A stretch of DNA of 64,000 bases from an uncultured Pirellulaceae bacterium (GTDB lineage: Bacteria > Planctomycetota > Planctomycetia > Pirellulales > Pirellulaceae): contig CALKCK010000016.1 in assembly GCA_938083195.1 (NCBI GenBank), positions 1-64,000 on the forward strand, read 5' to 3'. Position numbers and translations under genes: made by a program. Of the stretch, positions 38,202 to 56,776 are shown piece after piece. The notes under the pieces were generated by a model. It searched no databases. It was not told where the DNA came from and worked only from the letters and a program-made list of their open reading frames with translations. Position 1 is the stretch's first letter, and each line of letters opens with the position of its first letter.

Positions 38202-39356
38202 TTACTTTTCCGGCTCGGCAGGCGTTTCAATGTTGGCGGGGTTTTGAACCTCGGCAGGTTTTTCAGAACGGACAGATTGGTAAAGTTTCGCCAACTTTAG
38301 CAAGACAGGCTCGATCGACTGATAGTAACTTGCCTCGCCTAGTGCATCTTTTTTCTGACGTAACAATTCCAACTCTCGTTCTAGTTGTTCACGATTTTCT
38401 CGCTGTTCAATGGTTAATTCCGCCTCTGTGCCGCGGCGGATTAAGAACACCTGATTCGAGACGAAACCATCTGGCTCGTTCGCCTTGGATTTTTTTACCG
38501 TCCGAGTCCCCTGAAACCAATCCGAAGGCGTCCCCTTCCCGTCACCATTATCATCAATCATCGCCAACTCTGTGGCCAGACGAGTCTCTTGTAAGTAAAA
38601 CTCCTGCGTCTGAGAGGAAGCCGCCACAACCGCTTCCAACAAAGACGTTTGCAAATCTTTATCGAGATCGTACGCTGGGTCATCAATTGCCTTCGACAGG
38701 TATTCCCCAAATCTTGCAAAATTTCGCTGAGCACTCGACTTGGTCGCCGTAATGACCACACGATTAGGATCCTTGAGTTTTCCAACAAACCCACCACTCG
38801 AAGATGCACAGTTTACAACAATCGTGCGTGCCTTTTTATCAGTCAACCATTCGTGCAATTGCACCGCAGAGAGATCCGGTCCTCGCAGATTAAATTTAGA
38901 GACCTTTCCATCGTCAGTTCCATGCCCAATTAAGACCACCCATAACTCAGCGGTCGCGTCTCCTAAATTTGAAAGTTCTTGCTCCAATCGCTGCAGATCA
39001 TTTTGCCCCGCTGGATTATCCCCTGTACCAATGCACACGAAATCAGGGCCCGTATTGCCAGCCGAAGTAATCGCTGACTTCCAATTGTCTGCCCAACTTT
39101 CGAACTGTAGTTGGTAATCGTCACTCCCCCCCGTGCCTACTACGACAATTACCTTTTGCTCCTTTTGCTTTTGCTCCTGACCAAATAGATCCCCGCAACA
39201 TAAAAACAGGCCTGCCACCAAACACAGCGTCCCTGCCTTTTGGCAGAGAACCTTCCAACTCTTCGCTGCAGAAATCAATGGCCTAATCATTGCGATCCAT
39301 TCTCTATTTTGTTTTAGTGATCTCACGCCAACCCCTTCCAGCGTCGCAGTCCCCAT
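38202..39356 (-). CDS. Secreted/anchored caspase-fold (C13 legumain-like) protein (start may be 39290)
   Basis: LWVVLIGHGTDDG (His) and KARTIVVNCASSSGGFVGKL (Cys) in caspase-fold order, then VVITATKSSAQ; signal-like N-terminus. Confidence 0.6.
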   Translation of the reverse strand: MGTATLEGVGVRSLKQNREWIAMIRPLISAAKSWKVLCQKAGTLCLVAGLFLCCGDLFGQEQKQKEQKVIVVVGTGGSDDYQLQFESWADNWKSAITSAGNTGPDFVCIGTGDNPAGQNDLQRLEQELSNLGDATAELWVVLIGHGTDDGKVSKFNLRGPDLSAVQLHEWLTDKKARTIVVNCASSSGGFVGKLKDPNRVVITATKSSAQRNFARFGEYLSKAIDDPAYDLDKDLQTSLLEAVVAASSQTQEFYLQETRLATELAMIDDNGDGKGTPSDWFQGTRTVKKSKANEPDGFVSNQVFLIRRGTEAELTIEQRENREQLERELELLRQKKDALGEASYYQSIEPVLLKLAKLYQSVRSEKPAEVQNPANIETPAEPEK

Positions 39357-41682
39357 TCACCAATCAGCAATCCGATCGCTAATGAGAACACAGTCCATCG
39401 GTGCCACCAGGGATTCGAGACGGTCTCCATGACCGGCACTTCTCGATACTCCAATCCAGATACAAACTGCTCTAAAGAATCAATATCAATGACCTGACCA
39501 CCGGTTTGATCAGCAATCTCTTTCATCAACTGGGGATTAGGTTCAAGTGATTGAAATTCTTCACTGTCAGGTTCAGAAACCCACCCAGATTCTCGCGTTT
39601 CAATTTCGCTACCATCAGGTGCCTTCACAGCCACTGATGCTCGATAGACCCCAGTTTCCCCGGAAACAAAATTCGCGACGTAAACACCCGGCACGGAATC
39701 GGTGGGCTCACCTGCCAACTCAATCGTTTTACCCTCAGGCGTTTGTACTTGAATAGCTACGGTGGCATTATCGAAAGGCTTATAAGCTTCATCGTTAACG
39801 GAAACCTTAATCTCAGATGATCGGTTCGCATCATTAAGTCGATTTATCTCCACTTCTACACGTCGGGGGACATCAGCAATTGCCCATCGCAATGTCTGTC
39901 GCCAAGCCTTGAGCAAGTCCTCATTGTCCTCCTCACTCTTTAGTTGCCAACGCCAAAAATCTCCAATCAGCAATGCCCCGGAACGCCCGCGTCCGTAGGG
40001 TTGAACCACAAGTGCTGGATGCATTTCCTCGGCATCCGAAGTTACCGTTGCCAATACAGTCGCCCCTGGCTTGATGGAATTTGCGAGATTCACAGTCTTA
40101 AATTTCGGCATCGCCGCTAAGCGTTGCCTTTCTTTTTCTTCCGTCGACTCAATCCTAACCCAGGGCTGCAGCCAACCCTCACGCGTGAGATCGAGCTCGT
40201 ATTTTTCATCTGACGGAGACGCCAAACGGTCTAAGTAGACGGGCAACATTTCGCCAATTTGAGTTTTTGCGTAATCGCCCGCAACAAACGATTCTTGCCC
40301 ACCCAACATCAATAGCCCACCACCACGCAAACTAACGAATTGCTGCAGCAACGACTTTTGATCTTCCGTAAAGAAATCGGCTTCCAAGTCATCAATGACA
40401 ATGGCGTCATATTCAAAAAGCGTTTCAGCGTCTTTCGGAAATCCACCCCGCAATTCCTCTTTATCCCTCGTACCCAAGCGAATAAACACGGGCTCGTCAT
40501 GTTGCTCTGTTGTATCATCGTCCTGAGAATCGAATCCACGAAAAAGCGAATTAGATTGCTGACCGTCGCGCCCTCGAAAAGTAAACTTAGCCTCTCGCTT
40601 AGCTATTCTCACTAAGGCGACGAGATCTAACTCATCATCACCTTGCAATGACCTGCGCAAAAATTTAAGCTCCCAGTTTGGTCGTCCCGTCACGTATAAC
40701 AACCGAAAAGGGCCTCGACCACGATCCACGAGCACCAACCGCTCGTTATTAATAACCGTTGCTTCAGCCTGAGAATCAACTACCGACATCTCTCCTGCAG
40801 CTCCTGAAGCATAAGCCTTCACCTTGAACACGTTGATGCCACGACGCTCAGGCCGTGTTTGGAAACGCACGACAAATGGCCTACCGTCTTCGACATCCAT
40901 CACTTCTTTCTTAGAAACTTCCTCTCCCGCTTCATCGAGCAGGGCAACTACAATTTTCTCGCCCTCATAACCACTGGCCATCAATTCAGCCGTGATTGTT
41001 ACGGGAGCCGATTCAAAATTCGTCTGAGTGCTGCTGACTCTCGTAATGCCAAGATCTCTTGCTGGCAGCTGATTACCCAGCAAAACGGGGAACACTGGCG
41101 GCATAGAACCCCAAGGCATCGCAGCGAACGCTTCTTTATTCCAATCAGTTGCGTTCCCGTCGGTCATCAAAATAATTCCCGCTGCCGGGCGACCGGCAAA
41201 TCGATTTGTAGCCAAACTTAAATTCGAAAGAATATCACTCCCACGCTGGTCGGCACGAAATTCTTCAAAATTGGAAACCGGCCGCAAACGTCGGTCAAAT
41301 TGATATTTTCGAACATCAAAATCTTCAGCCAACTGACTCAACCAATTGGCCTCACCATTAAGCTTCTGGAACAGTTCCGCCTCTCGCGTCGTGCTCTCAC
41401 CTCGGTCTTTTATCTGCAGGCTTTGACTATCATCCGCCATAATCACCATCAAATTCGCCCCCTTTTCAGGGCGAGCGTAGCGATACATGGGCTCTAGCAA
41501 ACAAACCGCCAGTAACAACACAGCCGAAATCTTCATGAATGCCATGAGCGATTTAGAACCACCCGCCGCACGGGCATTGAAGTAAGACCAGATGACAATT
41601 ACTGCGGTAATCGCCATCAGAATAGCCACTGCCATTCCCCAGTCGGACGCTCCCCAGGCATTTGGGATCCAGGAACTATCCA

Positions 41683-41683
<1 letters not shown>
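39323..41683 (-). CDS. Membrane vWA-like/GATase-like protein of the MoxR operon
   Basis: Two N-terminal TMs, degenerate vWA (VIMADDSQSL, IILMTDGNATDWN), GATase-like DAIVIDDLEADFFTEDQKSLLQQFVSLRGGGLLMLGGQESF, C-terminal TM. Confidence 0.75.
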
Positions 41684-45410
<3,727 letters not shown>

Positions 45411-45411
<1 letters not shown>

Positions 45412-47600
45412 TAAACCAAATCTCCTCCAGTTTTAACTGTCACTGTTTCGCCGTTCGACAATTTCGACCTAGACGAAGTTCGCGCGGCAAGCCATGTCTC
45501 AAAGAGTAATAATAAAATAGCCGCGACAATTAACCACTTCCATATTTTCTGACGATCCTCGATATCTCGATCCAGCATCGAACGCATCTGCGCTCGTTCG
45601 GAGGCTGCTGTTTCCTGTTCGCCAACGTTAACTGAAAACATCTCGATCTGCTCCAGTGGAATCGCCGTCGTCGCACTTTCGGATCGATTTACATTCACAG
45701 CAAATAACATCTCCTCTTTTCCACGCGGCTCTGCGTTAACCTCGGACTCACTACCCGCGGAGTCTTTGTCGTTGTCAATCAATCGATAGATCCCCGGTTG
45801 ATCCGTTTGCGAAAAACTCGCTGAATCGGCAGAAATCACCTCTCGTGCGCCATCTGGTTTAACTATTTCACGATCCTTCAAGCCGTTTTCTGCGACGGGG
45901 ATAGAGATCGTTTCCCCGACCGTATAAGACTGATCGAGTTCAGGCAGATTGGCTGCAATTTCAACCAAACCATTAATCAATGGGACAAACTTCGTGGACA
46001 GTGCTAATTGGCTTTGACGTGGATTCCAGCCACTTGCCATCACATAAACGCATCCGCGATCTGGATTTTCTAATTTCCAAATAGCCGGATCGTCATTTTC
46101 AAATCGAGCCAGCACAACCGCCAGTGGATCGACAATTTCGACCGCTTGATGATTCCAGAATCGGATATTTGTAAAATCGTTATATCTAGGATTGGCGAAC
46201 AACTGAAACAACCGACTGGAGAAATCAATCTCAGCCAACATTTGATAATCGTCTTTCGAGCGGCGCGGCGCTTTCGATTTCGCTTTCAAGCGGCCACCAA
46301 TCCAATCCTGCGTGAAATTGACAGTTTCAGCATCCGACAGAATCACGAAAAGCGTCCCGCCCGCTTTCAAATAGTCATCAATTTCGTCCCGGCGAACTTC
46401 GCCAACCGGTGATGTCAACACCGTCAAAGCCGCCGGCCCCATGCCAGAACCTCGAAGCGAATCATCCGCTTTCAATTGCCGCGTGACCACTTTACGCGAG
46501 GGAGTCTCAATTAAACTTCGCCGCAAGTAATATTGCAATTCTTCTGGGTTATCTGGCGTATCGGTACCGAGATAATCCACTCTCAACATTTGCTGCTCGA
46601 CCGGAGCCACAAAATACGCGTTGTCAAAAATCTCAGAATCACCTGAGAGTTCGAAAACTTGATTGTTTAGATTTTGCTCCGGAGCAATTTGCATCACACG
46701 GCTCGTTCCAGCGGGAACAAAAAATGGCAACGATTCAGAAATCGTTCCATTTTTCCAGTTTACAAAAAACTGATCCACAACCGACTCTTCAGAATTTCGA
46801 ACTCTAATTCGCAGGCCAGAGTCAGATTCATCACTCGTCGCCGCCAACAATTGAAGCGTTGCGTTGGTGGGGTCTTTAGCGACGACCGAATAAAACTCGA
46901 CAAAAACAGTGGCTGGCCACTGGTAAGCTTGAAGAGAATCCAAATTCGATCCTTTCTGCAAGTCACTCACCACCGCCATTTGGAGTTTCGCGACCGTCGT
47001 TTTCTCGCCATCCACCCTCTGTGAATCTCGCCAAACATCCAGATTATCTGCAACCGTCACCATCGCATTTCCGAGGTCAGATCGATGCCACCCTGGCTCC
47101 AACGTTTTAAATCCCTTTCGGATCGAATCGGCACGAGCACTCAGGCTATCATTCAGCTGATCGTTAAAATCAACGACCGTTCGGACATTTTCGTCGAATG
47201 CCATCAGCGATACATCATCGCCTTTTTCCAAACCTGCTAATACGTTTTCCATTTGACGTTCAGCCTGATCCCAAAGACCAGACCGACGCATACTTGCGCT
47301 TGTGTCGATCAAAATTGCGACACGGCGGTTAGCAACTTCGTACTCGGTAAGCGAATTTTGCCCCCGAAAAAATGGTCTCATGAATGCAATTGCAATTAAG
47401 CCAATCGCCAGTGCCCGCAGCAAAAGTAATAATATATTCTCCAGACGACTTCGACGTGTTAGGGAGGGAGGCGAGGGCTTAAGGAATATTAGTGAACTAA
47501 ACTCCGTCTGCCCCTTCGGCGTCTGCCTTATCAAGTGAAGTAAAAATGGAAAGGCGATTGCCAAGGCCCCGAGACCAAACAACCAGGCGAGTGCACTCAT
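45411..47600 (-). CDS. BatA-type N-terminal TM + vWA domain protein
   Basis: MSALAWLFGLGALAIAFPFLLHLIRQTPKGQTEFSSLIFL; MIDAS RRVAILIDTSASMRRSGLWDQAERQMENVLAGLEKGDDVSLMAFDE. Confidence 0.9.
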
Positions 47601-48565
47601 TGGGCCCCCCTGACTTGCGTTGCGCGTTTTACGGATCTACCGTTGGACGCCCGGGATTGGAGCAACTCAAGCAAAGCGACTTCGAGCGGTTGATCCGTTG
47701 GAATGGTGAAATAATCGACGCCGATTTGATCACAGGTCTCTTTAATAGAAGATTCGTGCTCCAGAAACCTCTTCCGATACTCTGCCACTGCAGAATGCGG
47801 ATCGACATAGATTTCTCGCCCAGTCTCCAAATCCCGAAACAAACTCGCTTTATCAAACTCAAACTCAATTTCGGTTGGGTCAAGAGTTCTCAAAATGACA
47901 ACTTCATGCCCGCGTGTTCGAAGGTAATTAAGTTTTTTTATGAAACTCTCAACGGGAGCGAGCAAATCTGAAATCAAGACAACAAGCCCACGCTTTGAAA
48001 CCGTTTGCGCAATCTGCTCAAGGGGAGCCGACAAATCAGTTGACTTGCCAGAAGTAGAATTTTCGAGCGTTAGCATCAACCGTCGCAAGTGTCCTGCCCG
48101 ATAGCGGGGAGGAATCATGTCCACGATTTGATCACCAAAAGTAACCAACCCAACCGCGTCTCGCTGGCGATTCAAGAACCATGCAAGGGATGCCGCCATC
48201 GTTTTGGCGTATTCTAATTTGGAATATTCACCCGAACCAAAACCCATGGAATGACTCATGTCGACCAAGAGATAACAACGGAGATTCGTTTCATCTTCAA
48301 ACCGCTTAATGTAATAACGATCTTGCTTGGCATAGAGTTTCCAGTCGAGGTAACGAAGATCATCTCCAACGGAATACTGTCGGTAATCGGTAAACTCAAC
48401 TGAGAAACCATGATAGGGACTGCGATGAAGCCCCGACATAAAACCCTCAACTACAATTTTTGCGCGCAATTCGAGATTCTTAATCTGCATAATTGCAGTG
48501 GGTGACACCCCGGAAGAAGGGCGGACCGCTGATGTTGATTCGTGAGTGGGTGAAAGATCGGCCAA
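47597..48565 (-). CDS. DUF58 domain-containing protein
   Basis: FMSGLHRSPYHGFSVEFTDYRQYSVGDDLRYLDWKLYAKQDRYYIKRFEDETNLRCYLLVDMSHSMGFG. Confidence 0.96.
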   Translation of the reverse strand: MADLSPTHESTSAVRPSSGVSPTAIMQIKNLELRAKIVVEGFMSGLHRSPYHGFSVEFTDYRQYSVGDDLRYLDWKLYAKQDRYYIKRFEDETNLRCYLLVDMSHSMGFGSGEYSKLEYAKTMAASLAWFLNRQRDAVGLVTFGDQIVDMIPPRYRAGHLRRLMLTLENSTSGKSTDLSAPLEQIAQTVSKRGLVVLISDLLAPVESFIKKLNYLRTRGHEVVILRTLDPTEIEFEFDKASLFRDLETGREIYVDPHSAVAEYRKRFLEHESSIKETCDQIGVDYFTIPTDQPLEVALLELLQSRASNGRSVKRATQVRGAQ

Positions 48566-48622
48566 ACATGCCTCTACAAGCTAAGAATTAAAATGACAAC
48601 TACTTTAGAACGATTCCCGCAA

Positions 48623-49639
48623 TCATTTGTTTCCTACCTGTGGCACAGACACATGTTCTAACAATTGGTCTATGATCTTCTCGACGGTAACCCCTTCCGC
48701 TTCAGCACGATAACTTGGCAGAATCCTGTGCCGCAAAACAGGATGCGCCAATGACTTTACGTCATCGAGATTCACATGCGATCTCCCACAAAAAAGAGCC
48801 CTCGCTTTAGAACCAAGAATCAAATTCTGAGCAGCCCTCAAACCAGCTCCCCAGTTGACATATTGATTCACAAACTCCGGCGCGCCCGCCCGGCCTGGCC
48901 GACTCGCATCAGCAATCCGAACGGCATAACGCACCAAGTCTTCCGCAACAGGGACGTTTTTAACCGTCCCGTGAAAACGCCGAACGTCTTCCGCTGAAAA
49001 AAGTTTATCAATCGTCTGTTTAAATTCAGAGGTGGTCTGTTGAACCACTTTAACTTCTTCGTCTTGACTTAAATAATCAATTTTTACGTTGAACATAAAT
49101 CGATCGAGCTGTGCTTCAGGAAGCGGGTAAGTCCCCTCCATTTCGATCGGATTTTGCGTCGCCAACACAAAAAACGGTTCTTCGAGTTGATAACTGACGC
49201 CCGCCGCAGTTACTTGATGCTCTTGCATCGCCTCAAGAAGGGCTGCCTGTGTTTTCGGTGGAGTTCGATTTATCTCATCTGCCAAAACAACATTAGCGAA
49301 AATTGGCCCCTTCACAAATTGCATGGACCTCGAACCACCGTCGTTCTCTTGGAGAATTTCAGTTCCCGTAATGTCGGCCGGCATCAAATCGGGAGTAAAC
49401 TGAATTCGACGGAAATTCAAATCGAAAACCTCCGCAATACTTCTCACCAGCAACGTCTTCGCCAATCCAGGGGCGCCGGTAATAAGACAATTCCCACCCG
49501 CAAACAGACTGATCAACAACTGCTCGATTACCAACTCCTGCCCAACGATCAACTTGGATAATTGATCATAGATTTTTTGCCGACCATCTCTGATCTGCTG
49601 CACGGCATGCTGTTCTTCTTCGTAGGTATTGAGTGTCAC
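48623..49639 (-). CDS. MoxR family AAA+ ATPase
   Basis: GAPGLAKTLLVRSIAEVFDLNFRRIQFTPDLMPADITGTEI; VLADEINRTPPKTQAALLEAMQEHQVT; VLATQNPIEMEGTYPLPEAQLDRFMF. Confidence 0.97.
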   Translation of the reverse strand: MTLNTYEEEQHAVQQIRDGRQKIYDQLSKLIVGQELVIEQLLISLFAGGNCLITGAPGLAKTLLVRSIAEVFDLNFRRIQFTPDLMPADITGTEILQENDGGSRSMQFVKGPIFANVVLADEINRTPPKTQAALLEAMQEHQVTAAGVSYQLEEPFFVLATQNPIEMEGTYPLPEAQLDRFMFNVKIDYLSQDEEVKVVQQTTSEFKQTIDKLFSAEDVRRFHGTVKNVPVAEDLVRYAVRIADASRPGRAGAPEFVNQYVNWGAGLRAAQNLILGSKARALFCGRSHVNLDDVKSLAHPVLRHRILPSYRAEAEGVTVEKIIDQLLEHVSVPQVGNK

Positions 49640-49683
49640 TTCGTCAGCTCCAGTTATTTAATTTCATTTTCATCGATTTCAAA

Positions 49684-50538
49684 TCAATGAGTCATTGCAT
49701 AGGTCACGATATTAATTCCGAGAGGGTACGCATAAGGTTCCGAATAAGTCTCGAAATACCCCCGATCAACGCCCTCTCGCTCCCAGCCATCGCCAAGGTC
49801 TGTATTGTGACAAATGAAGGCCATCATTCGTCCATCGTCGTCAAAGATGCCGCGATAATTAGCCGACTCTGCGTCTGCCCGTTCCGTTTTCCGGCCGTAC
49901 ATAAAATGCTGAATACTGGGAATTTGAGGCTTCTTATCGAGATCATAGACGATGTGAAAAATCTCATGATCAAGCGGGATGTCCTCGGGTTCTCGGTCGG
50001 GAAAAACCCGTTTCATTTCCCGATAAAAATTCGCCCACTCGTCTTCACCCCAAAAATCATCCACCATTAAAAAACCGCCCTTGTTTAGATAACGACGCAG
50101 CGCAAGCACCTCTTCCTCGCTAAACAACAGATGACCCGGTTCGATAATATAAATAAATGGGTAGTCAAAGAGCGATTCATCCGTGAGCCGAATGATCACT
50201 CCCTCGGGGGCAACCTCCAGAGAGGTAAGCTCTTTCAATCGGTAGGAAAGATTTAAATCCGCGTCGGGAAAATCAGTTCGCCACTTACCACGACTGCCGC
50301 CTCGCCCGCCACGCCATCCGTAATTTCCATAATGGGAATCGTATTGAATTCGAGCGAAGGTAAACACATCGTCTTTGAATCCCTTACTCTCCTCCCACAG
50401 GGGGACACCATTGCGTTGATTTTCATCCATTCCCCGGCGGCCACCAAATTGACGCTGATAATCCTGAGCGACCACCCAACCGGCGATCAATAACCCAAAA
50501 ACCAGCAGGCAGATTTTGTTTCCAAAAATAGAATTCAT
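49684..50538 (-). CDS. DUF4159 domain-containing protein
   Basis: FTFARIQYDSHYGNYGWRGG...LFSEEEVLALRRYLNKGGFLMVDDFWGEDEW; overlaps the upstream gene by 4 nt. Confidence 0.88.
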   Translation of the reverse strand: MNSIFGNKICLLVFGLLIAGWVVAQDYQRQFGGRRGMDENQRNGVPLWEESKGFKDDVFTFARIQYDSHYGNYGWRGGRGGSRGKWRTDFPDADLNLSYRLKELTSLEVAPEGVIIRLTDESLFDYPFIYIIEPGHLLFSEEEVLALRRYLNKGGFLMVDDFWGEDEWANFYREMKRVFPDREPEDIPLDHEIFHIVYDLDKKPQIPSIQHFMYGRKTERADAESANYRGIFDDDGRMMAFICHNTDLGDGWEREGVDRGYFETYSEPYAYPLGINIVTYAMTH

Positions 50539-53069
50539 GGAGACTCCTTTTTGGTCTCAACCGCATCAGCCTTGATGGCTTCCGGCGTAAACTTCACTGG
50601 CGGGGAAATCTCAGCTTGAGCATCGACAATCTCAAGCAACAAATCATAAGCCGCTCGGTAACGAGGGGCACGCTCTAACGATCGGACTACCTGGTCTTTC
50701 GCCTCCCCCAGTTGTTGCTGTCGAAACAAAGCCGATGCCAGGCGGTAGTGGACATCAGCAGCGTCCAGCGGATCCATTCTCGCAAGAGCAGTCAACGATT
50801 CAACCGTTGCCTGATCATCTTGCGTCTGCTCAGCGGCAACCGCAAGGAATCGGTAGGGCGATGGCAGCAAAGGGTTCAGAGCGAGCATTTTACGGGCTAC
50901 CGACTTTACTTCCGCCCAATCAGAATTAGCAGAATAAATCTCAAGCAGCCGCATTAACAACTCAACACTATTGGCCTCCATCGCCACATACTGTTCGAGC
51001 ATTTTCAATTCTTCATCAGGATCATCCAATTTGCGATGGCACTGAGCGAGAAGAGGGTACGTAGATTTCATTTCAGGACAAATTTCTAAAATCTTCAAAA
51101 GTGCATCTCTCGCCGATTCCCACCGCTCCTCCTCAATAGCCTGACGGGCTTCTTGATTTAACCCAGCAAGATTATTGGGATGCTCTTGATTCCATTGCTT
51201 CCAATCAGCCGCCGTTGCGTCGGGAATTAATTTCACTTTATCCCAATTCGCCGTTGGCGCGAAAGCTTCAGCCTTCTGCAAAGCAAACTTCGCAAACGAC
51301 TTGTCGATAAATTCAATGGGGGCACAATGACGCCGCAGCGCGTCGTTTATCGGAGTCCCAAATGCCAATTCCTGAAGTACATTTTTCAATCCGTCCAGGC
51401 CGAATTCCTGAATTAAATATTCTACGACCAATGATGATTCATAATAGGCAAACTGTAAATGAACGGGGGAGGGCGGTCGCAGAAACGCACCACTTAACTC
51501 GCTTACGGGCGTTAAGCTCTCCGAGAGTACCATTTCACGGAACACCGTTCCCATCGTCTCTCCCCAAGCCGAATCCGCAAGCTTTTCCTCGTGCACAGAA
51601 ATCCCCTCACTCAGCCAGCGGGGCATCTTATTTTTTGTTTTCTGAAGCGTGACAACATGGCAGAACTCATGCCACAAAACCGACTCCCAGCTCGTCAAAT
51701 TCACTCCCTGAGCGGCAGGACTATTCATCGTGATGACACGCCCAAAACAGACACCCAAAAAACCGGACCCACCCGGCAATCCAAATGTACGAATCGCAAA
51801 ATCCTGTTGACGCGGGAAGATCTCTACAAAAACTGGCGTTTCCAATTCTGAATCATACTTGGTGCACAAATCTGCTTTCGCTCGAACAAGCAATTCTAAA
51901 ACTCGATCACCATATATCGCAGCTTCGTCGGCTCCCATCCGAACAACAAATCCATCTCGTTCAAGCGTCTTAAATTTAGCGATCTCATCCCGCAGCGTAA
52001 CGAGGTTGTAGGCCACGACACTGTATTGATCTTCGTCAAAAACTTCATCCGCCAATTTCCAGCCTTCCAACTCTTGCCCCAACCGCAAAAGGTCATGTGC
52101 TAATTGAATCTTTGCCGGCAGAAAATTCTCGTCGTAAACCAATGCGCGTCTCTGGTATTCTTCCCCTTCGGAAAATCGATATTTTTCCGACAACTCCCGA
52201 CCAATTAAATGATCCACCTCTGGATTGCCCAGCCAACCCGCAAATGCCCGCTCTCGAAATTCACCTTCTTGCTGGGGCTGATTTTGCAAATGAGCAATCA
52301 CCGACCGGTAAGCCCATGCCCTGGGAAGCTGCGGATGGACTTTCTGAATTTTCTCCAAAGTTTCAATCGCTTTGTCGTAGTCCTCTGAACTTATCTGCTG
52401 ATCCGCAAGCAACAGCAAGATCTCGACGTTAGATGGGTTAATCGCGAGAACACGGTTCACCAACTCATTTACCTTTTCGGAATCGCTCGGCAGAAACGAC
52501 TTCGCAAGCCCGACCATTGCATCGACATCCGCAGGAAGTAATTGAAGCACCTCCGAATAATTCTCCGCTGCCAACGCATAATCCTGTTTCGAAAAAGCCA
52601 AATCCGCAATCGCCCGAAACACTTCGGGATTGGTTGGATACCGCTTTCGGACAGGGTAATAAAAAAGATCAAGCACTTCTTTTGCATCCGCGTTTCGACT
52701 AAGAAAATATCTGCCAAGAGCAAGCTGGTTAGCAAGGTCTTTGTATCGCCATGAATTCCTCGAAGCGAGGGTTTCTATTTCCGACAGCAATTTGGCCGAA
52801 CCGTCATCGTCTCCACTGAATCGACGCACCTCGCTTCCAATCCTCCGCAGCCGAATGCTATTCTTAAATCGAATCAACGAGGCATCCAAACTCTCAACGG
52901 CAGCCTCATAATCTCCAGTCTTTAACTGACACTCAATTGTGCGAATTGCCCATTTCTCCTCAACGCTGTAACGCCCCAATTTTTCATCGATTGCTCCCGC
53001 AAGCTTAATTACTTCAGAATACCGCCCTTCATTGTAAAGGCGTTCGGCCTGCTCAGATTCCGACTCCAC
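50535..53069 (-). CDS. TPR protein with embedded gluzincin (peptidase MA-like, HEFCH) domain
   Basis: Multiple TPRs; SVLWHEFCHVVTLQKTKNKMPRWLSEGISVHEE fits HExxH plus a downstream Glu. Confidence 0.85.
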   Translation of the reverse strand: MESESEQAERLYNEGRYSEVIKLAGAIDEKLGRYSVEEKWAIRTIECQLKTGDYEAAVESLDASLIRFKNSIRLRRIGSEVRRFSGDDDGSAKLLSEIETLASRNSWRYKDLANQLALGRYFLSRNADAKEVLDLFYYPVRKRYPTNPEVFRAIADLAFSKQDYALAAENYSEVLQLLPADVDAMVGLAKSFLPSDSEKVNELVNRVLAINPSNVEILLLLADQQISSEDYDKAIETLEKIQKVHPQLPRAWAYRSVIAHLQNQPQQEGEFRERAFAGWLGNPEVDHLIGRELSEKYRFSEGEEYQRRALVYDENFLPAKIQLAHDLLRLGQELEGWKLADEVFDEDQYSVVAYNLVTLRDEIAKFKTLERDGFVVRMGADEAAIYGDRVLELLVRAKADLCTKYDSELETPVFVEIFPRQQDFAIRTFGLPGGSGFLGVCFGRVITMNSPAAQGVNLTSWESVLWHEFCHVVTLQKTKNKMPRWLSEGISVHEEKLADSAWGETMGTVFREMVLSESLTPVSELSGAFLRPPSPVHLQFAYYESSLVVEYLIQEFGLDGLKNVLQELAFGTPINDALRRHCAPIEFIDKSFAKFALQKAEAFAPTANWDKVKLIPDATAADWKQWNQEHPNNLAGLNQEARQAIEEERWESARDALLKILEICPEMKSTYPLLAQCHRKLDDPDEELKMLEQYVAMEANSVELLMRLLEIYSANSDWAEVKSVARKMLALNPLLPSPYRFLAVAAEQTQDDQATVESLTALARMDPLDAADVHYRLASALFRQQQLGEAKDQVVRSLERAPRYRAAYDLLLEIVDAQAEISPPVKFTPEAIKADAVETKKESP

Positions 53070-53405
53070 AGGAGTCGCCGAGAGAGAATCAACAATACTT
53101 TGGCCAGTCGAGATGGTCGGAGTGAATGCAAAGAGTGCACAAGCAACGCACCAAGCTCCAAACCAAATTAGAAATTCACGAGCAAGCTTAGGGGCAGGGC
53201 AGGTAATCGGTTCAGCCTCGGCAATATTTAGGCAACTTAAACGAGGAAGCCGAAATCGGCTGTCTTTATTGTATTAAATGCAACTGGGCGTGCAAAGTTG
53301 CGGACAAAGTCACATTTGTCACAAATTACCAGCAACGGTCATTTACTGAAACCAAAAGCCCGCGGTTGATCTTGCCACGCACATCCACTATTTTTTCGGT
53401 TATGG

Positions 53406-54310: not shown

Positions 54311-56776
54311 TTAAATTTCGTCACCCTCGCCTGTCTTAGGCACAATGGGCTGATCATCGTCCGATCCGCCGGCAGGCTGTACCTGAGCCAGCTTCATTGG
54401 ACTGGCCAACGTCAGTCTCCAAAATTTCTCAATTTCGTTATGAGCTTTCGCTAACAAAGAACCAACTGGATAAACTCCTTGATCGTCAACTTGCCCCGCA
54501 GTTTGACCAGTCATCAATTCAATTGCATCATAAATATTATCAACTGCAAATACGTGAAACTTACCTTGACGGCAAGCTTCAACAACTCGTTCACTAAGCA
54601 TTAGGTCGCCAGCATTCGATTTTGGCACCACCACACCTTGATTTCCATTGAGACCAAAATAGTCACAAGCATCGAAGAACCCCTCCACTTTTTCGTTGAC
54701 TCCACCGATTGCCTCGAGGTGACCGTGCTGGTCAATTGCGCCAGTCATGGCCATCGACTGCTTGATCGGAATCCCAGTCAATGCACTCAGCAAACAGACA
54801 ATTTCAGCTCCCGACGCAGAGTCTCCATCAATGCCGCCGTAACTTTGCTCGAACGCCAAAGACGCACTAAAGGCCATCGGATGTTCCGTCCTTAGTAAGT
54901 GCCGCAGTAACCCACCCAGGATATGAAAGCCCTTGGTATGAATTGCACCGGACATTTGAGCACGGCCCTCGATATTAATTAAACCAGCACTACCGGGACC
55001 AATCGTGGCTGTGATTCGAGCGGGAAACCCATAGGTCAAGGGACCGGAATGCATCACTGCGAGGCCATTAATCTGCCCGACAACGTCGCCATCGGTTTGC
55101 ACCATCAACGTCTGACTTTCAACCATTTCACGAAATTTTCTTGACGGTAAACTGGCTCGATCTCGCGTCCGTTGAACCGCTTGCAGCACGTGGGCTTCCG
55201 TCACTATCTCTTCCGCGGAGAGAAACGCTGCTTCCCTCGCAATATCAGCGATCCGACCAAACCGGGCCGACAAGCGATTATTCCTCGCAACGATTCTCGC
55301 ACCATGCTCAGCCAAGGCGGCAACCGCAGATCGATGAAACGGTGGCAAGCCCTCTGACCGACTTAAACCAGCGACAACGCTGGCGTACTGACAAACCGCT
55401 TCATCACTTCGCGGCAACTCACTGTCGAAATCAGCGAGCACTTTGAATAGTTCCCGAAAATCAGGATCTGCATGATCGAGTTGATAATACGTTTTTGCAT
55501 CTCCAATTAAAATGACTCGCACCCGAATTTCGATCGGCTCAGGTTGCGTAATAACTGTCTGCCGCATCCACCCTGCTTCGGGCGGTACAATTTCCAAACG
55601 GCCTGTTCGCAGTGTCCGCATCAATGCTCGCCATGCCCCAGGTTCCGAAACAACATCGTTAACATCCAAGATCAGATAGCCTTGGTCTGCCTGCAACAAG
55701 GCACCCGCACGAACCCCACGATAATCGGAAACCGCCATTCCGCCCGGGCCAATATCTGATTCCACCGTTCCCAATAAATTAATTAAACTGGGGGTGTTTT
55801 CTTCGATGACCGGGCGAGATTCGTCAGGATCATGGGAAAGGACAATATTAACGCCATATAATTCCTTAAAATTCGGACCATCTTCGCCACCGGCATGGAG
55901 ATGATTCTCAATTACATCTTCCAGAACCTCGTCGAGAAAATCCCGAACCGCCGCGTCTTGAAATTTCTCTTGAATCGGATCTGTATAATTCTTAAGCAAT
56001 TCCGTCGCATATTTCTCCGTTAGATTGATGACTTTTTGGGAAGCCGAGCGAATGATCAAATTCACCTCCCGACTCGTTTCAACAAGTCTCTTCTGATAGC
56101 CGGGAAGGGCATCTTCGAATTGCTTCAACTGTTCTTCACTGGCCTCTTTCTTGGCGACCTTAGCCCGCAGTGCTTCGTGAGGCACCGGTTCACCGTCGAC
56201 AATCGGCATAATCATTGTCTGAGTGGCTGGCCCTTGTTGAACAGAAACCAGCGCCATGCCATTGCTCTCAATCTCTTTTTCCAATGGCTCGGTCACCAAT
56301 TTAATCGACGCCTGAACCTCGTCTTGGACCCTTTGGCGATGGGAAGCATGCGGTTCCGACTCGATCGCTTTAGGCAAGCCATCTTCGACGAACTCCGCCA
56401 ACTTCTCCATCGACTTGCGAAACGCACCAGCCTGTCCGGGTGGCAAAGTGATCAACCGAGGACGTTCTAACCTTCGAAAATTGTGGACATAGCAAAAATC
56501 TCGCTTCGCTGGCGTGACAGGTGCAAAATCTTTAAGCATCTGTCGAACCATCGTAATCCGCCCGGTTCCCCTCGCACCCCGCACGTAAACATTTTGGCCC
56601 TGAGCAAGGCATTGAATTCCAAATTTCAATGCTTCATACGCCGTAGGCTGCCCAACGACACCTTGAACCGGATCGATTTCAGCAGTCGTCTCAAATGGCA
56701 AAACATCTAAATTGCATTTCCAACGGAGCAACGCTGGTGGAACTTCTTTTTCGAAAGCAGACATGGAATTGGGCAT
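54311..56776 (-). CDS. LonB-like/AAA_32 ATP-dependent protease (Lon-related, COG1067-type)
   Basis: Lon protease domain FEQSYGGIDGDSASGAEIVCLLSALTGIPIKQSMAMTGAIDQHGHLEAIGGVNEKVEGFF (Ser/Lys dyad); N-terminal AAA-like GARGTGRITMVRQML. Confidence 0.93.
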   Translation of the reverse strand: MPNSMSAFEKEVPPALLRWKCNLDVLPFETTAEIDPVQGVVGQPTAYEALKFGIQCLAQGQNVYVRGARGTGRITMVRQMLKDFAPVTPAKRDFCYVHNFRRLERPRLITLPPGQAGAFRKSMEKLAEFVEDGLPKAIESEPHASHRQRVQDEVQASIKLVTEPLEKEIESNGMALVSVQQGPATQTMIMPIVDGEPVPHEALRAKVAKKEASEEQLKQFEDALPGYQKRLVETSREVNLIIRSASQKVINLTEKYATELLKNYTDPIQEKFQDAAVRDFLDEVLEDVIENHLHAGGEDGPNFKELYGVNIVLSHDPDESRPVIEENTPSLINLLGTVESDIGPGGMAVSDYRGVRAGALLQADQGYLILDVNDVVSEPGAWRALMRTLRTGRLEIVPPEAGWMRQTVITQPEPIEIRVRVILIGDAKTYYQLDHADPDFRELFKVLADFDSELPRSDEAVCQYASVVAGLSRSEGLPPFHRSAVAALAEHGARIVARNNRLSARFGRIADIAREAAFLSAEEIVTEAHVLQAVQRTRDRASLPSRKFREMVESQTLMVQTDGDVVGQINGLAVMHSGPLTYGFPARITATIGPGSAGLINIEGRAQMSGAIHTKGFHILGGLLRHLLRTEHPMAFSASLAFEQSYGGIDGDSASGAEIVCLLSALTGIPIKQSMAMTGAIDQHGHLEAIGGVNEKVEGFFDACDYFGLNGNQGVVVPKSNAGDLMLSERVVEACRQGKFHVFAVDNIYDAIELMTGQTAGQVDDQGVYPVGSLLAKAHNEIEKFWRLTLASPMKLAQVQPAGGSDDDQPIVPKTGEGDEI

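What the first reader, a model, noticed from the sequence alone, without database searches (positions are those of the whole stretch)
38202..53069. Eight-gene MoxR/DUF58/vWA operon bracketed by two putative proteases
Seen: eight consecutive minus-strand genes with 1-34 nt overlaps or short gaps: TPR-HEFCH gluzincin, DUF4159, MoxR AAA+, DUF58, BatA-like vWA, DUF4175-like coiled-coil protein, vWA/GATase-like protein, caspase-fold (GHG...NCASSSGG) protein. Known: MoxR-DUF58-vWA-DUF4159-type clusters recur in planctomycetes, function largely unknown. Inference: a chaperone/vWA envelope machine coupled to a regulated gluzincin at one end and a caspase-like protease at the other, possibly a proteolytic or cell-envelope stress module.
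Basis: partly seen in the sequence, partly recalled or inferred. Interest (0 to 1): 0.75.

Follow-up and report, generated by a model that had tools for sequence, protein, structure and literature searches.

The report
Conserved eight-gene MoxR envelope module
Eight neighbouring genes in a Pirellulaceae-like bacterium are gained, kept and lost together across Planctomycetota and Verrucomicrobiota, and look like a membrane-spanning, ATP-driven protein-handling machine with one intact-looking protease at one end and a caspase-shaped, calcium-loop protein, probably not an active protease, at the other.

Summary
In detail: eight minus-strand genes (38202-53069), junctions from -34 to +57 nt. They are TPR-gluzincin, DUF4159, MoxR, DUF58, BatA-vWA, DUF4175-like coiled coil, vWA/GATase-like and caspase-fold protein.

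Of 199 genomes of the class, the gluzincin, DUF4159 and caspase-fold genes occur together in 88, about 107 have none, and few are mixed. All 20 syntenic loci fetched have the eight genes in the same order. The two end genes also occur with the core in Verrucomicrobiota and Sedimentisphaerales. Genes outside the eight are kept only in the six nearest relatives. Genomes lacking the module also lack its own MoxR and vWA/GATase orthologues.

The gluzincin motif is intact and invariant. The caspase fold is real (AlphaFold pLDDT 86; best solved-structure matches MALT1 and caspases), but no cysteine is conserved at the nucleophile: the cited Cys183 is lost at least nine times on the tree while His145 is kept. 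Two EF-hand-like loops are almost invariant. I read it as a calcium-binding, probably non-proteolytic subunit.

Best reading: MoxR/DUF58 in the cytosol driving a periplasm-facing vWA machine with a partner metalloprotease. Function is inferred; nothing was measured.

The parts
50535..53225 (-). Exported TPR protein with gluzincin (Peptidase MA) domain; ORF from GTG 53069, signal peptide in frame upstream to about 53225 with a non-ATG/GTG/TTG start
   Evidence: Peptidase_MA_2 in 15 of 15 orthologues; H502-E503-x-x-H506 ... W520-x-S522-E523-G524 invariant in A3 numbering; upstream signal peptide
49684..50538 (-). DUF4159 protein with N-terminal signal peptide
   Evidence: PF13709 2.9e-54; 69 of 284 positions invariant in 26 sequences
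48623..49639 (-). MoxR AAA+ ATPase, cytosolic
   Evidence: AAA_3 4.4e-63; Walker A GAPGLAKT and the LADEINR segment invariant in 23
47597..48565 (-). DUF58 vWA protein, cytosolic
   Evidence: PF01882 1e-50; DxSxS MIDAS residues kept; no TM helix
45411..47600 (-). BatA-like membrane protein with vWA domain predicted to face the periplasm
   Evidence: BatA 1e-11, VWA_2 3.2e-9; TMs 3-21, 56-74, 686-704 with positive loop between the first two; DTSAS MIDAS
41683..45411 (-). DUF4175-like membrane-anchored coiled-coil protein, most of it predicted in the periplasm
   Evidence: PF13779 1.2e-4, below cut-off; three N-terminal TMs
39323..41683 (-). Membrane vWA protein with GATase-like domain (no Cys at the presumed nucleophile elbow) and Ig-like part
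   Evidence: PF07090 3.2e-10; TM pair and DxSxS
38202..39356 (-). Exported caspase-fold protein with two EF-hand-like loops (residues 230-241 and 268-279); probable pseudoprotease
   Evidence: AF2 model pLDDT 86 / pTM 0.80; Foldseek to MALT1 E 1.5e-6, probability 1.00; residue conservation

Best explanation
The eight genes encode one ATP-driven, membrane-spanning protein-handling machine. Shown: gene content, order, co-inheritance, the caspase fold, and intact motifs of MoxR, of the three vWA MIDAS sites and of the gluzincin. Inferred: a MoxR ring with its DUF58 vWA partner works in the cytosol on the membrane subunits (BatA-vWA, vWA/GATase, DUF4175-like coiled coil), whose large domains hang in the periplasm and, with DUF4159, hold and remodel a client envelope complex. 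The TPR-gluzincin is the periplasmic metalloprotease that trims or clears those clients. The caspase-fold protein is a calcium-binding, mostly non-proteolytic subunit that senses or scaffolds; in distant sister operons it may still be a working clan CD peptidase.
For: All-or-none distribution of end genes and core: 88 of 199 genomes with all three markers, about 107 with none. The 22 negative genomes tested lack the MoxR orthologue (best paralogue 421 bits or less, against 477-551 for orthologues) and the vWA/GATase orthologue (99 or less, against 588-881). Eight-gene order in 20 of 20 loci. Gluzincin next to DUF4159 in Verrucomicrobiota and Sedimentisphaerales, with batA-cc-gat-casp order in those loci. 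Parts kept even where scattered over the chromosome (G024, G137, G178, G206). Flanking genes not conserved beyond the six nearest relatives. Topology. HExxH...E invariant. Caspase fold. Changes at Cys183 while EF-hand residues D230/D232/D234/S238/E241 and D269/D272 are kept in 100-102 of 102. Borrelia BB0173, a MoxR-linked vWA protein, has its vWA domain towards the periplasm (PMC5700661).
Against: No client is known and no biochemistry or expression data exist for this operon. Complex formation was not modelled. Phyletic tests are not corrected for phylogeny. The Leptospira bat deletion had no growth, morphology or stress phenotype (PMC3557215).
Confidence: 0.6

Rival explanations
1. Two-protease module: both end genes are active proteases switched on by the MoxR/vWA machine; the caspase-fold protein uses Cys183 (or Ser185) with His145.
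For: His145 is invariant in 102 of 102 and Cys183 is present in 85 of 102; the in-operon homologue L091 passes the Pfam C13 and C14 cut-offs; caspase fold.
Against: At least nine changes at position 183, to T, S, A or M, with the rest of the protein and the operon kept; positions 184 and 185 are never Cys in these orthologues, and 185 is Ala in 4.
Confidence: 0.2
2. A chaperone for cofactor or metal insertion into one envelope enzyme complex (classical MoxR role); the end proteins are accessory folding factors and the gluzincin only processes the precursor.
For: MoxR proteins mature specific complexes such as methanol dehydrogenase and NO reductase (PMC3893208); the module is a stand-alone unit kept or lost whole.
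Against: No enzyme complex is linked to the operon: flanking genes differ between genomes.
Confidence: 0.15
3. A biological-conflict or defence system of the MoxR-vWA ternary kind with a caspase effector.
For: MoxR, vWA and a caspase fold co-occur in such systems (PMC7159879); MoxR matches bpMoxR at 44 bits and DolB at 8.3e-8.
Against: The MoxR fits the ordinary AAA_3 model far better (211 bits); no VMAP, STAND or beta-propeller part appears among the Pfam matches; the caspase-fold protein is predicted to be exported; PADLOC finds nothing in the seven other proteins; constant gene content instead of effector swapping.
Confidence: 0.05

Closest known systems
Rhizobium leguminosarum RL3499-RL3502 operon (Vanderlinde et al. 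2011, J Bacteriol 193:2684; seen here only through citing papers)
   Same: MoxR-type ATPase in a broadly conserved operon; mutants have envelope-integrity and morphology defects (PMC3893208, PMC5118466, PMC5700661). DUF4159 also matches in Caulobacter.
   Different: A four-gene range; gluzincin and caspase-fold genes are not mentioned in the passages read. Sequences were not compared directly here.
Bat (Bacteroides aerotolerance) operons of Bacteroides, Leptospira and Borrelia
   Same: MoxR, DUF58, BatA-type inner-membrane vWA protein facing the periplasm, TPR protein (PMC5700661).
   Different: No BatD among the eight products; adds DUF4159, the DUF4175-like coiled coil, vWA/GATase, gluzincin and caspase-fold protein.
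MoxR-vWA ternary conflict systems (eLife 2020, PMC7159879)
   Same: MoxR/vWA pair with a caspase-fold protein.
   Different: No third core component, no effector diversity, exported end proteins.
Pseudo-orthocaspases (PMC6426788)
   Same: Bacterial caspase-fold proteins without an intact dyad; EF-hand fusions are noted there for archaeal orthocaspases.
   Different: Those replace the catalytic His by Tyr and Cys by Ser; here His is invariant and the protein belongs to a MoxR operon, with a weak C13 rather than p20 (C14) match.

Membership tests
MoxR-DUF58-BatA vWA operons (broad kind) | MoxR ATPase with intact Walker motifs | tested here: met
   AAA_3 4.4e-63; GAPGLAKT invariant
MoxR-DUF58-BatA vWA operons (broad kind) | DUF58 and membrane BatA-type vWA protein next to MoxR, MIDAS kept | tested here: met
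Bat operon (Bacteroides type) | BatD protein in the operon | tested here: not met
   No BatD match among the eight products
RL3499-RL3502-type operon | Direct orthology of the shared proteins | not tested
   Rhizobium sequences were not fetched; only citing papers read
Gluzincin / Peptidase MA | HExxH plus downstream Glu | tested here: met
   Invariant in 15; Pfam above cut-off
Clan CD cysteine peptidase (C13/C14) | Caspase fold | tested here: met
   AF2 plus Foldseek
Clan CD cysteine peptidase (C13/C14) | Catalytic His | tested here: met
   H145 102 of 102; part of the set was fetched with a GHGT-bearing pattern
Clan CD cysteine peptidase (C13/C14) | Conserved catalytic Cys | tested here: not met
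   No invariant Cys at 183, 184 or 185; at least 9 changes at 183
Clan CD cysteine peptidase (C13/C14) | Pfam C13 above curated cut-off | tested here: not met
   16.2 against 22.8 bits
EF-hand protein | Two DxDxDG-type loops 36-40 residues apart | tested here: met
   Loops 230-241 and 268-279, 38 apart, almost invariant; Pfam EF-hand only marginal, 2 of 25
EF-hand protein | Calcium binding | not testable with these tools
   needs calorimetry or a structure
MoxR-vWA ternary conflict system | VMAP, iSTAND, FtsH or beta-propeller third component | tested here: not met
   none of the eight products shows one in Pfam

The most novel reading that the evidence does not exclude
A calcium-sensing envelope quality-control machine found in Planctomycetota and Verrucomicrobiota, in which a caspase-fold protein that has lost protease activity acts as the calcium-gated regulator of a MoxR/vWA complex and its partner metalloprotease.
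Probability: 0.25. Interest if true: 0.85.

Novelty: new variant of a known kind. Interest (0 to 1): 0.6.

Why it matters
MoxR/vWA operons are widespread and their envelope role is poorly understood. Here an eight-gene unit with fixed content and order is kept or lost whole across two phyla with unusual cell envelopes, so its parts list is defined and it can be tested by gene removal. It also ties a caspase-fold protein with calcium-type loops and a decayed active site to an AAA+ envelope machine; I found no description of this in the literature searched (no paper mentions DUF4159; none holds MoxR, DUF58 and DUF4159 together).

Tried and rejected
Sequence searches of solved structures with the caspase-fold protein or its profiles found no relevant match; only structure comparison did. 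BFVD gave giant-virus caspases, taken as fold matches only. Plasmid search for DUF4159 gave two distant hits of no help. The first register I tried put Ser185 at the nucleophile; hhalign gave conflicting registers for two homologues, so the conclusion was restated as 'no candidate position holds a conserved Cys'. Promoter and terminator scans found no more than shuffles. The first DUF4159 alignment failed on frame and was not needed. The conflict-system reading was considered and set aside.

Full report
What is there. Eight minus-strand genes occupy 38202-53069. The junctions, in order of transcription, are -4, +44, +57, -4, -1, -1 and -34 nt, which fits one transcript (inferred; not measured). 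Pfam assigns gluzincin plus TPR, DUF4159, MoxR AAA_3, DUF58, BatA plus VWA, a weak DUF4175, GATase1_like, and a sub-threshold Peptidase C13 for the last gene. The nearest relatives of the last gene are Mariniblastus / Pirellulaceae metagenome assemblies at 77-82% identity, so the window is from a Pirellulaceae-like planctomycete.

Is it a unit? In 199 genomes of the class the caspase-fold gene is found in 91 (a further weak paralogue hit in G281 was set aside), DUF4159 in 90, the gluzincin in 90, all three in 88; about 107 have none. Fisher tests give about 1e-51 or smaller, but they ignore phylogeny and should be read as descriptive. Absences occur inside families that otherwise carry the module (two in the window's own family; mixed families f78 and f80), so several events are involved. 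Twenty loci fetched from diverse genera all carry the eight genes in the same order on one strand, and 53 genomes have the three markers at the same spacing. In several genomes (G024, G137, G178, G198, G206, G270, G318) the parts lie apart, yet all are retained; where the assembly is one contig (G024, G206) this is true scattering and argues for function rather than mere linkage. The 22 genomes without the module that were tested do have 3-11 other MoxR genes but not this MoxR (421 bits or less, against 477-551) nor this vWA/GATase protein (99 or less, against 588-881). As a boundary control, the genes just downstream of the operon (S9 peptidase and the next two) are strongly conserved only in the six closest relatives, and the two upstream neighbours were found in none of the loci fetched (the loci reach only a short way upstream).

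Range. A scan of species-level genomes gave 486 relatives of the caspase-fold protein; the best 80 include Verrucomicrobiota, Sedimentisphaerales and Phycisphaerales assemblies, most with batA-cc-gat-casp order where enough DNA is held. Twelve such genomes were searched for the other end: all have the gluzincin and eleven have DUF4159, next to it on the contig in each. By the contig coordinates the gluzincin lies about 11-16 kb from the caspase-fold gene in ten of the twelve, and elsewhere in the Phycisphaerales (L172) and one Verrucomicrobiales (L173) genome. More distant planctomycetes have moxR-DUF58-batA-cc-GAT-(DUF4159)-casp, in whole or in part, without the gluzincin next to it (L086, L087, L089-L091), so the GATase-caspase neighbourhood looks older than the gluzincin's attachment.

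The gluzincin. Peptidase_MA_2 is found in 15 of 15 orthologues, and HExxH with the downstream WLSEG glutamate is invariant. It looks catalytically able. Its signal peptide lies in frame upstream of the listed GTG start and has no usual start codon; orthologues also have hydrophobic N-termini.

The caspase-fold protein. AlphaFold2 with 57 sequences gives pLDDT 86.3, pTM 0.80, with most of residues 67-365 above 90. The best solved-structure matches are the MALT1 paracaspase and caspases (E 1.5e-6, probability 1.00); TM-scores are modest (about 0.36 by query length, up to 0.61 by target). Among 102 orthologues His145 is invariant (part of the set was fetched with a GHGT-bearing pattern, so that count is slightly favoured; in the 25 chosen without it, His145 is also invariant). 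Positions 184 and 185 are never Cys; 185 is Ser in 98 and Ala in 4. Which of 183-185 sits at the nucleophile could not be settled, but none carries a conserved Cys. Two EF-hand-like loops, 230-241 and 268-279, are almost invariant; in the model the first lies between helices 216-223 and 239-257. In the distant homologue L091 (same neighbourhood type) a Cys falls at column 185 and Pfam C13 and C14 pass their cut-offs, so the family probably descends from working peptidases.

Topology. Hydropathy and charge place MoxR and DUF58 in the cytosol, anchor BatA, the coiled coil and vWA/GATase in the inner membrane with their large parts outside, and give DUF4159, gluzincin and caspase-fold protein an export signal or N-terminal anchor (simple scale, inference). 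The experimentally placed homologous arrangement in Borrelia (BB0173) has its vWA domain towards the periplasm (PMC5700661).

How it may work. MoxR proteins are described as chaperone-like ATPases acting with vWA partners on specific complexes (PMC3893208, PMC7159879). I propose that this module remodels or polices an envelope complex, with the gluzincin as its protease and the caspase-fold protein as a calcium-binding subunit. The first half rests on family knowledge and topology; the roles of the end proteins are inference. Rivals and refuting results are listed separately.

Verdict. New variant of a known kind.

Noticed in passing
53069-53225 (minus strand): The gluzincin's signal peptide is in frame upstream of the first ATG/GTG/TTG; the true start may be ATT (53225 or 53207) or the assembly may hold an error.
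   Followed up: partly
G000:C7:89823-90599 (locus L097): A second DUF4159 gene, 55% identical to the operon copy, stands apart from the operon; none of the other seven operon genes was found in the 20 kb fetched around it.
   Followed up: partly
G342:C14:196939-200661: In a Pedosphaera-like Verrucomicrobiota genome four tandem DUF4159 genes sit next to the gluzincin.
   Followed up: no
54311-56776 (minus strand): A Lon-like protease with LonC helical and LonB AAA/LID domains lies upstream of the operon; not found in any of the other loci fetched, which reach only a short way upstream.
   Followed up: partly
L084 / L150 (G176 and Blastopirellula marina), beside the caspase-fold gene: A second, paralogous MoxR-DUF58-vWA/GATase cluster lies within a few kb of the module.
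   Followed up: no
L093 (G135:C7, 5,965 bases): A genome from another class has cc-gat-casp (42% identity in the caspase-fold gene) on one short contig, but no DUF4159 match and only a distant gluzincin match elsewhere; transfer or contamination.
   Followed up: partly
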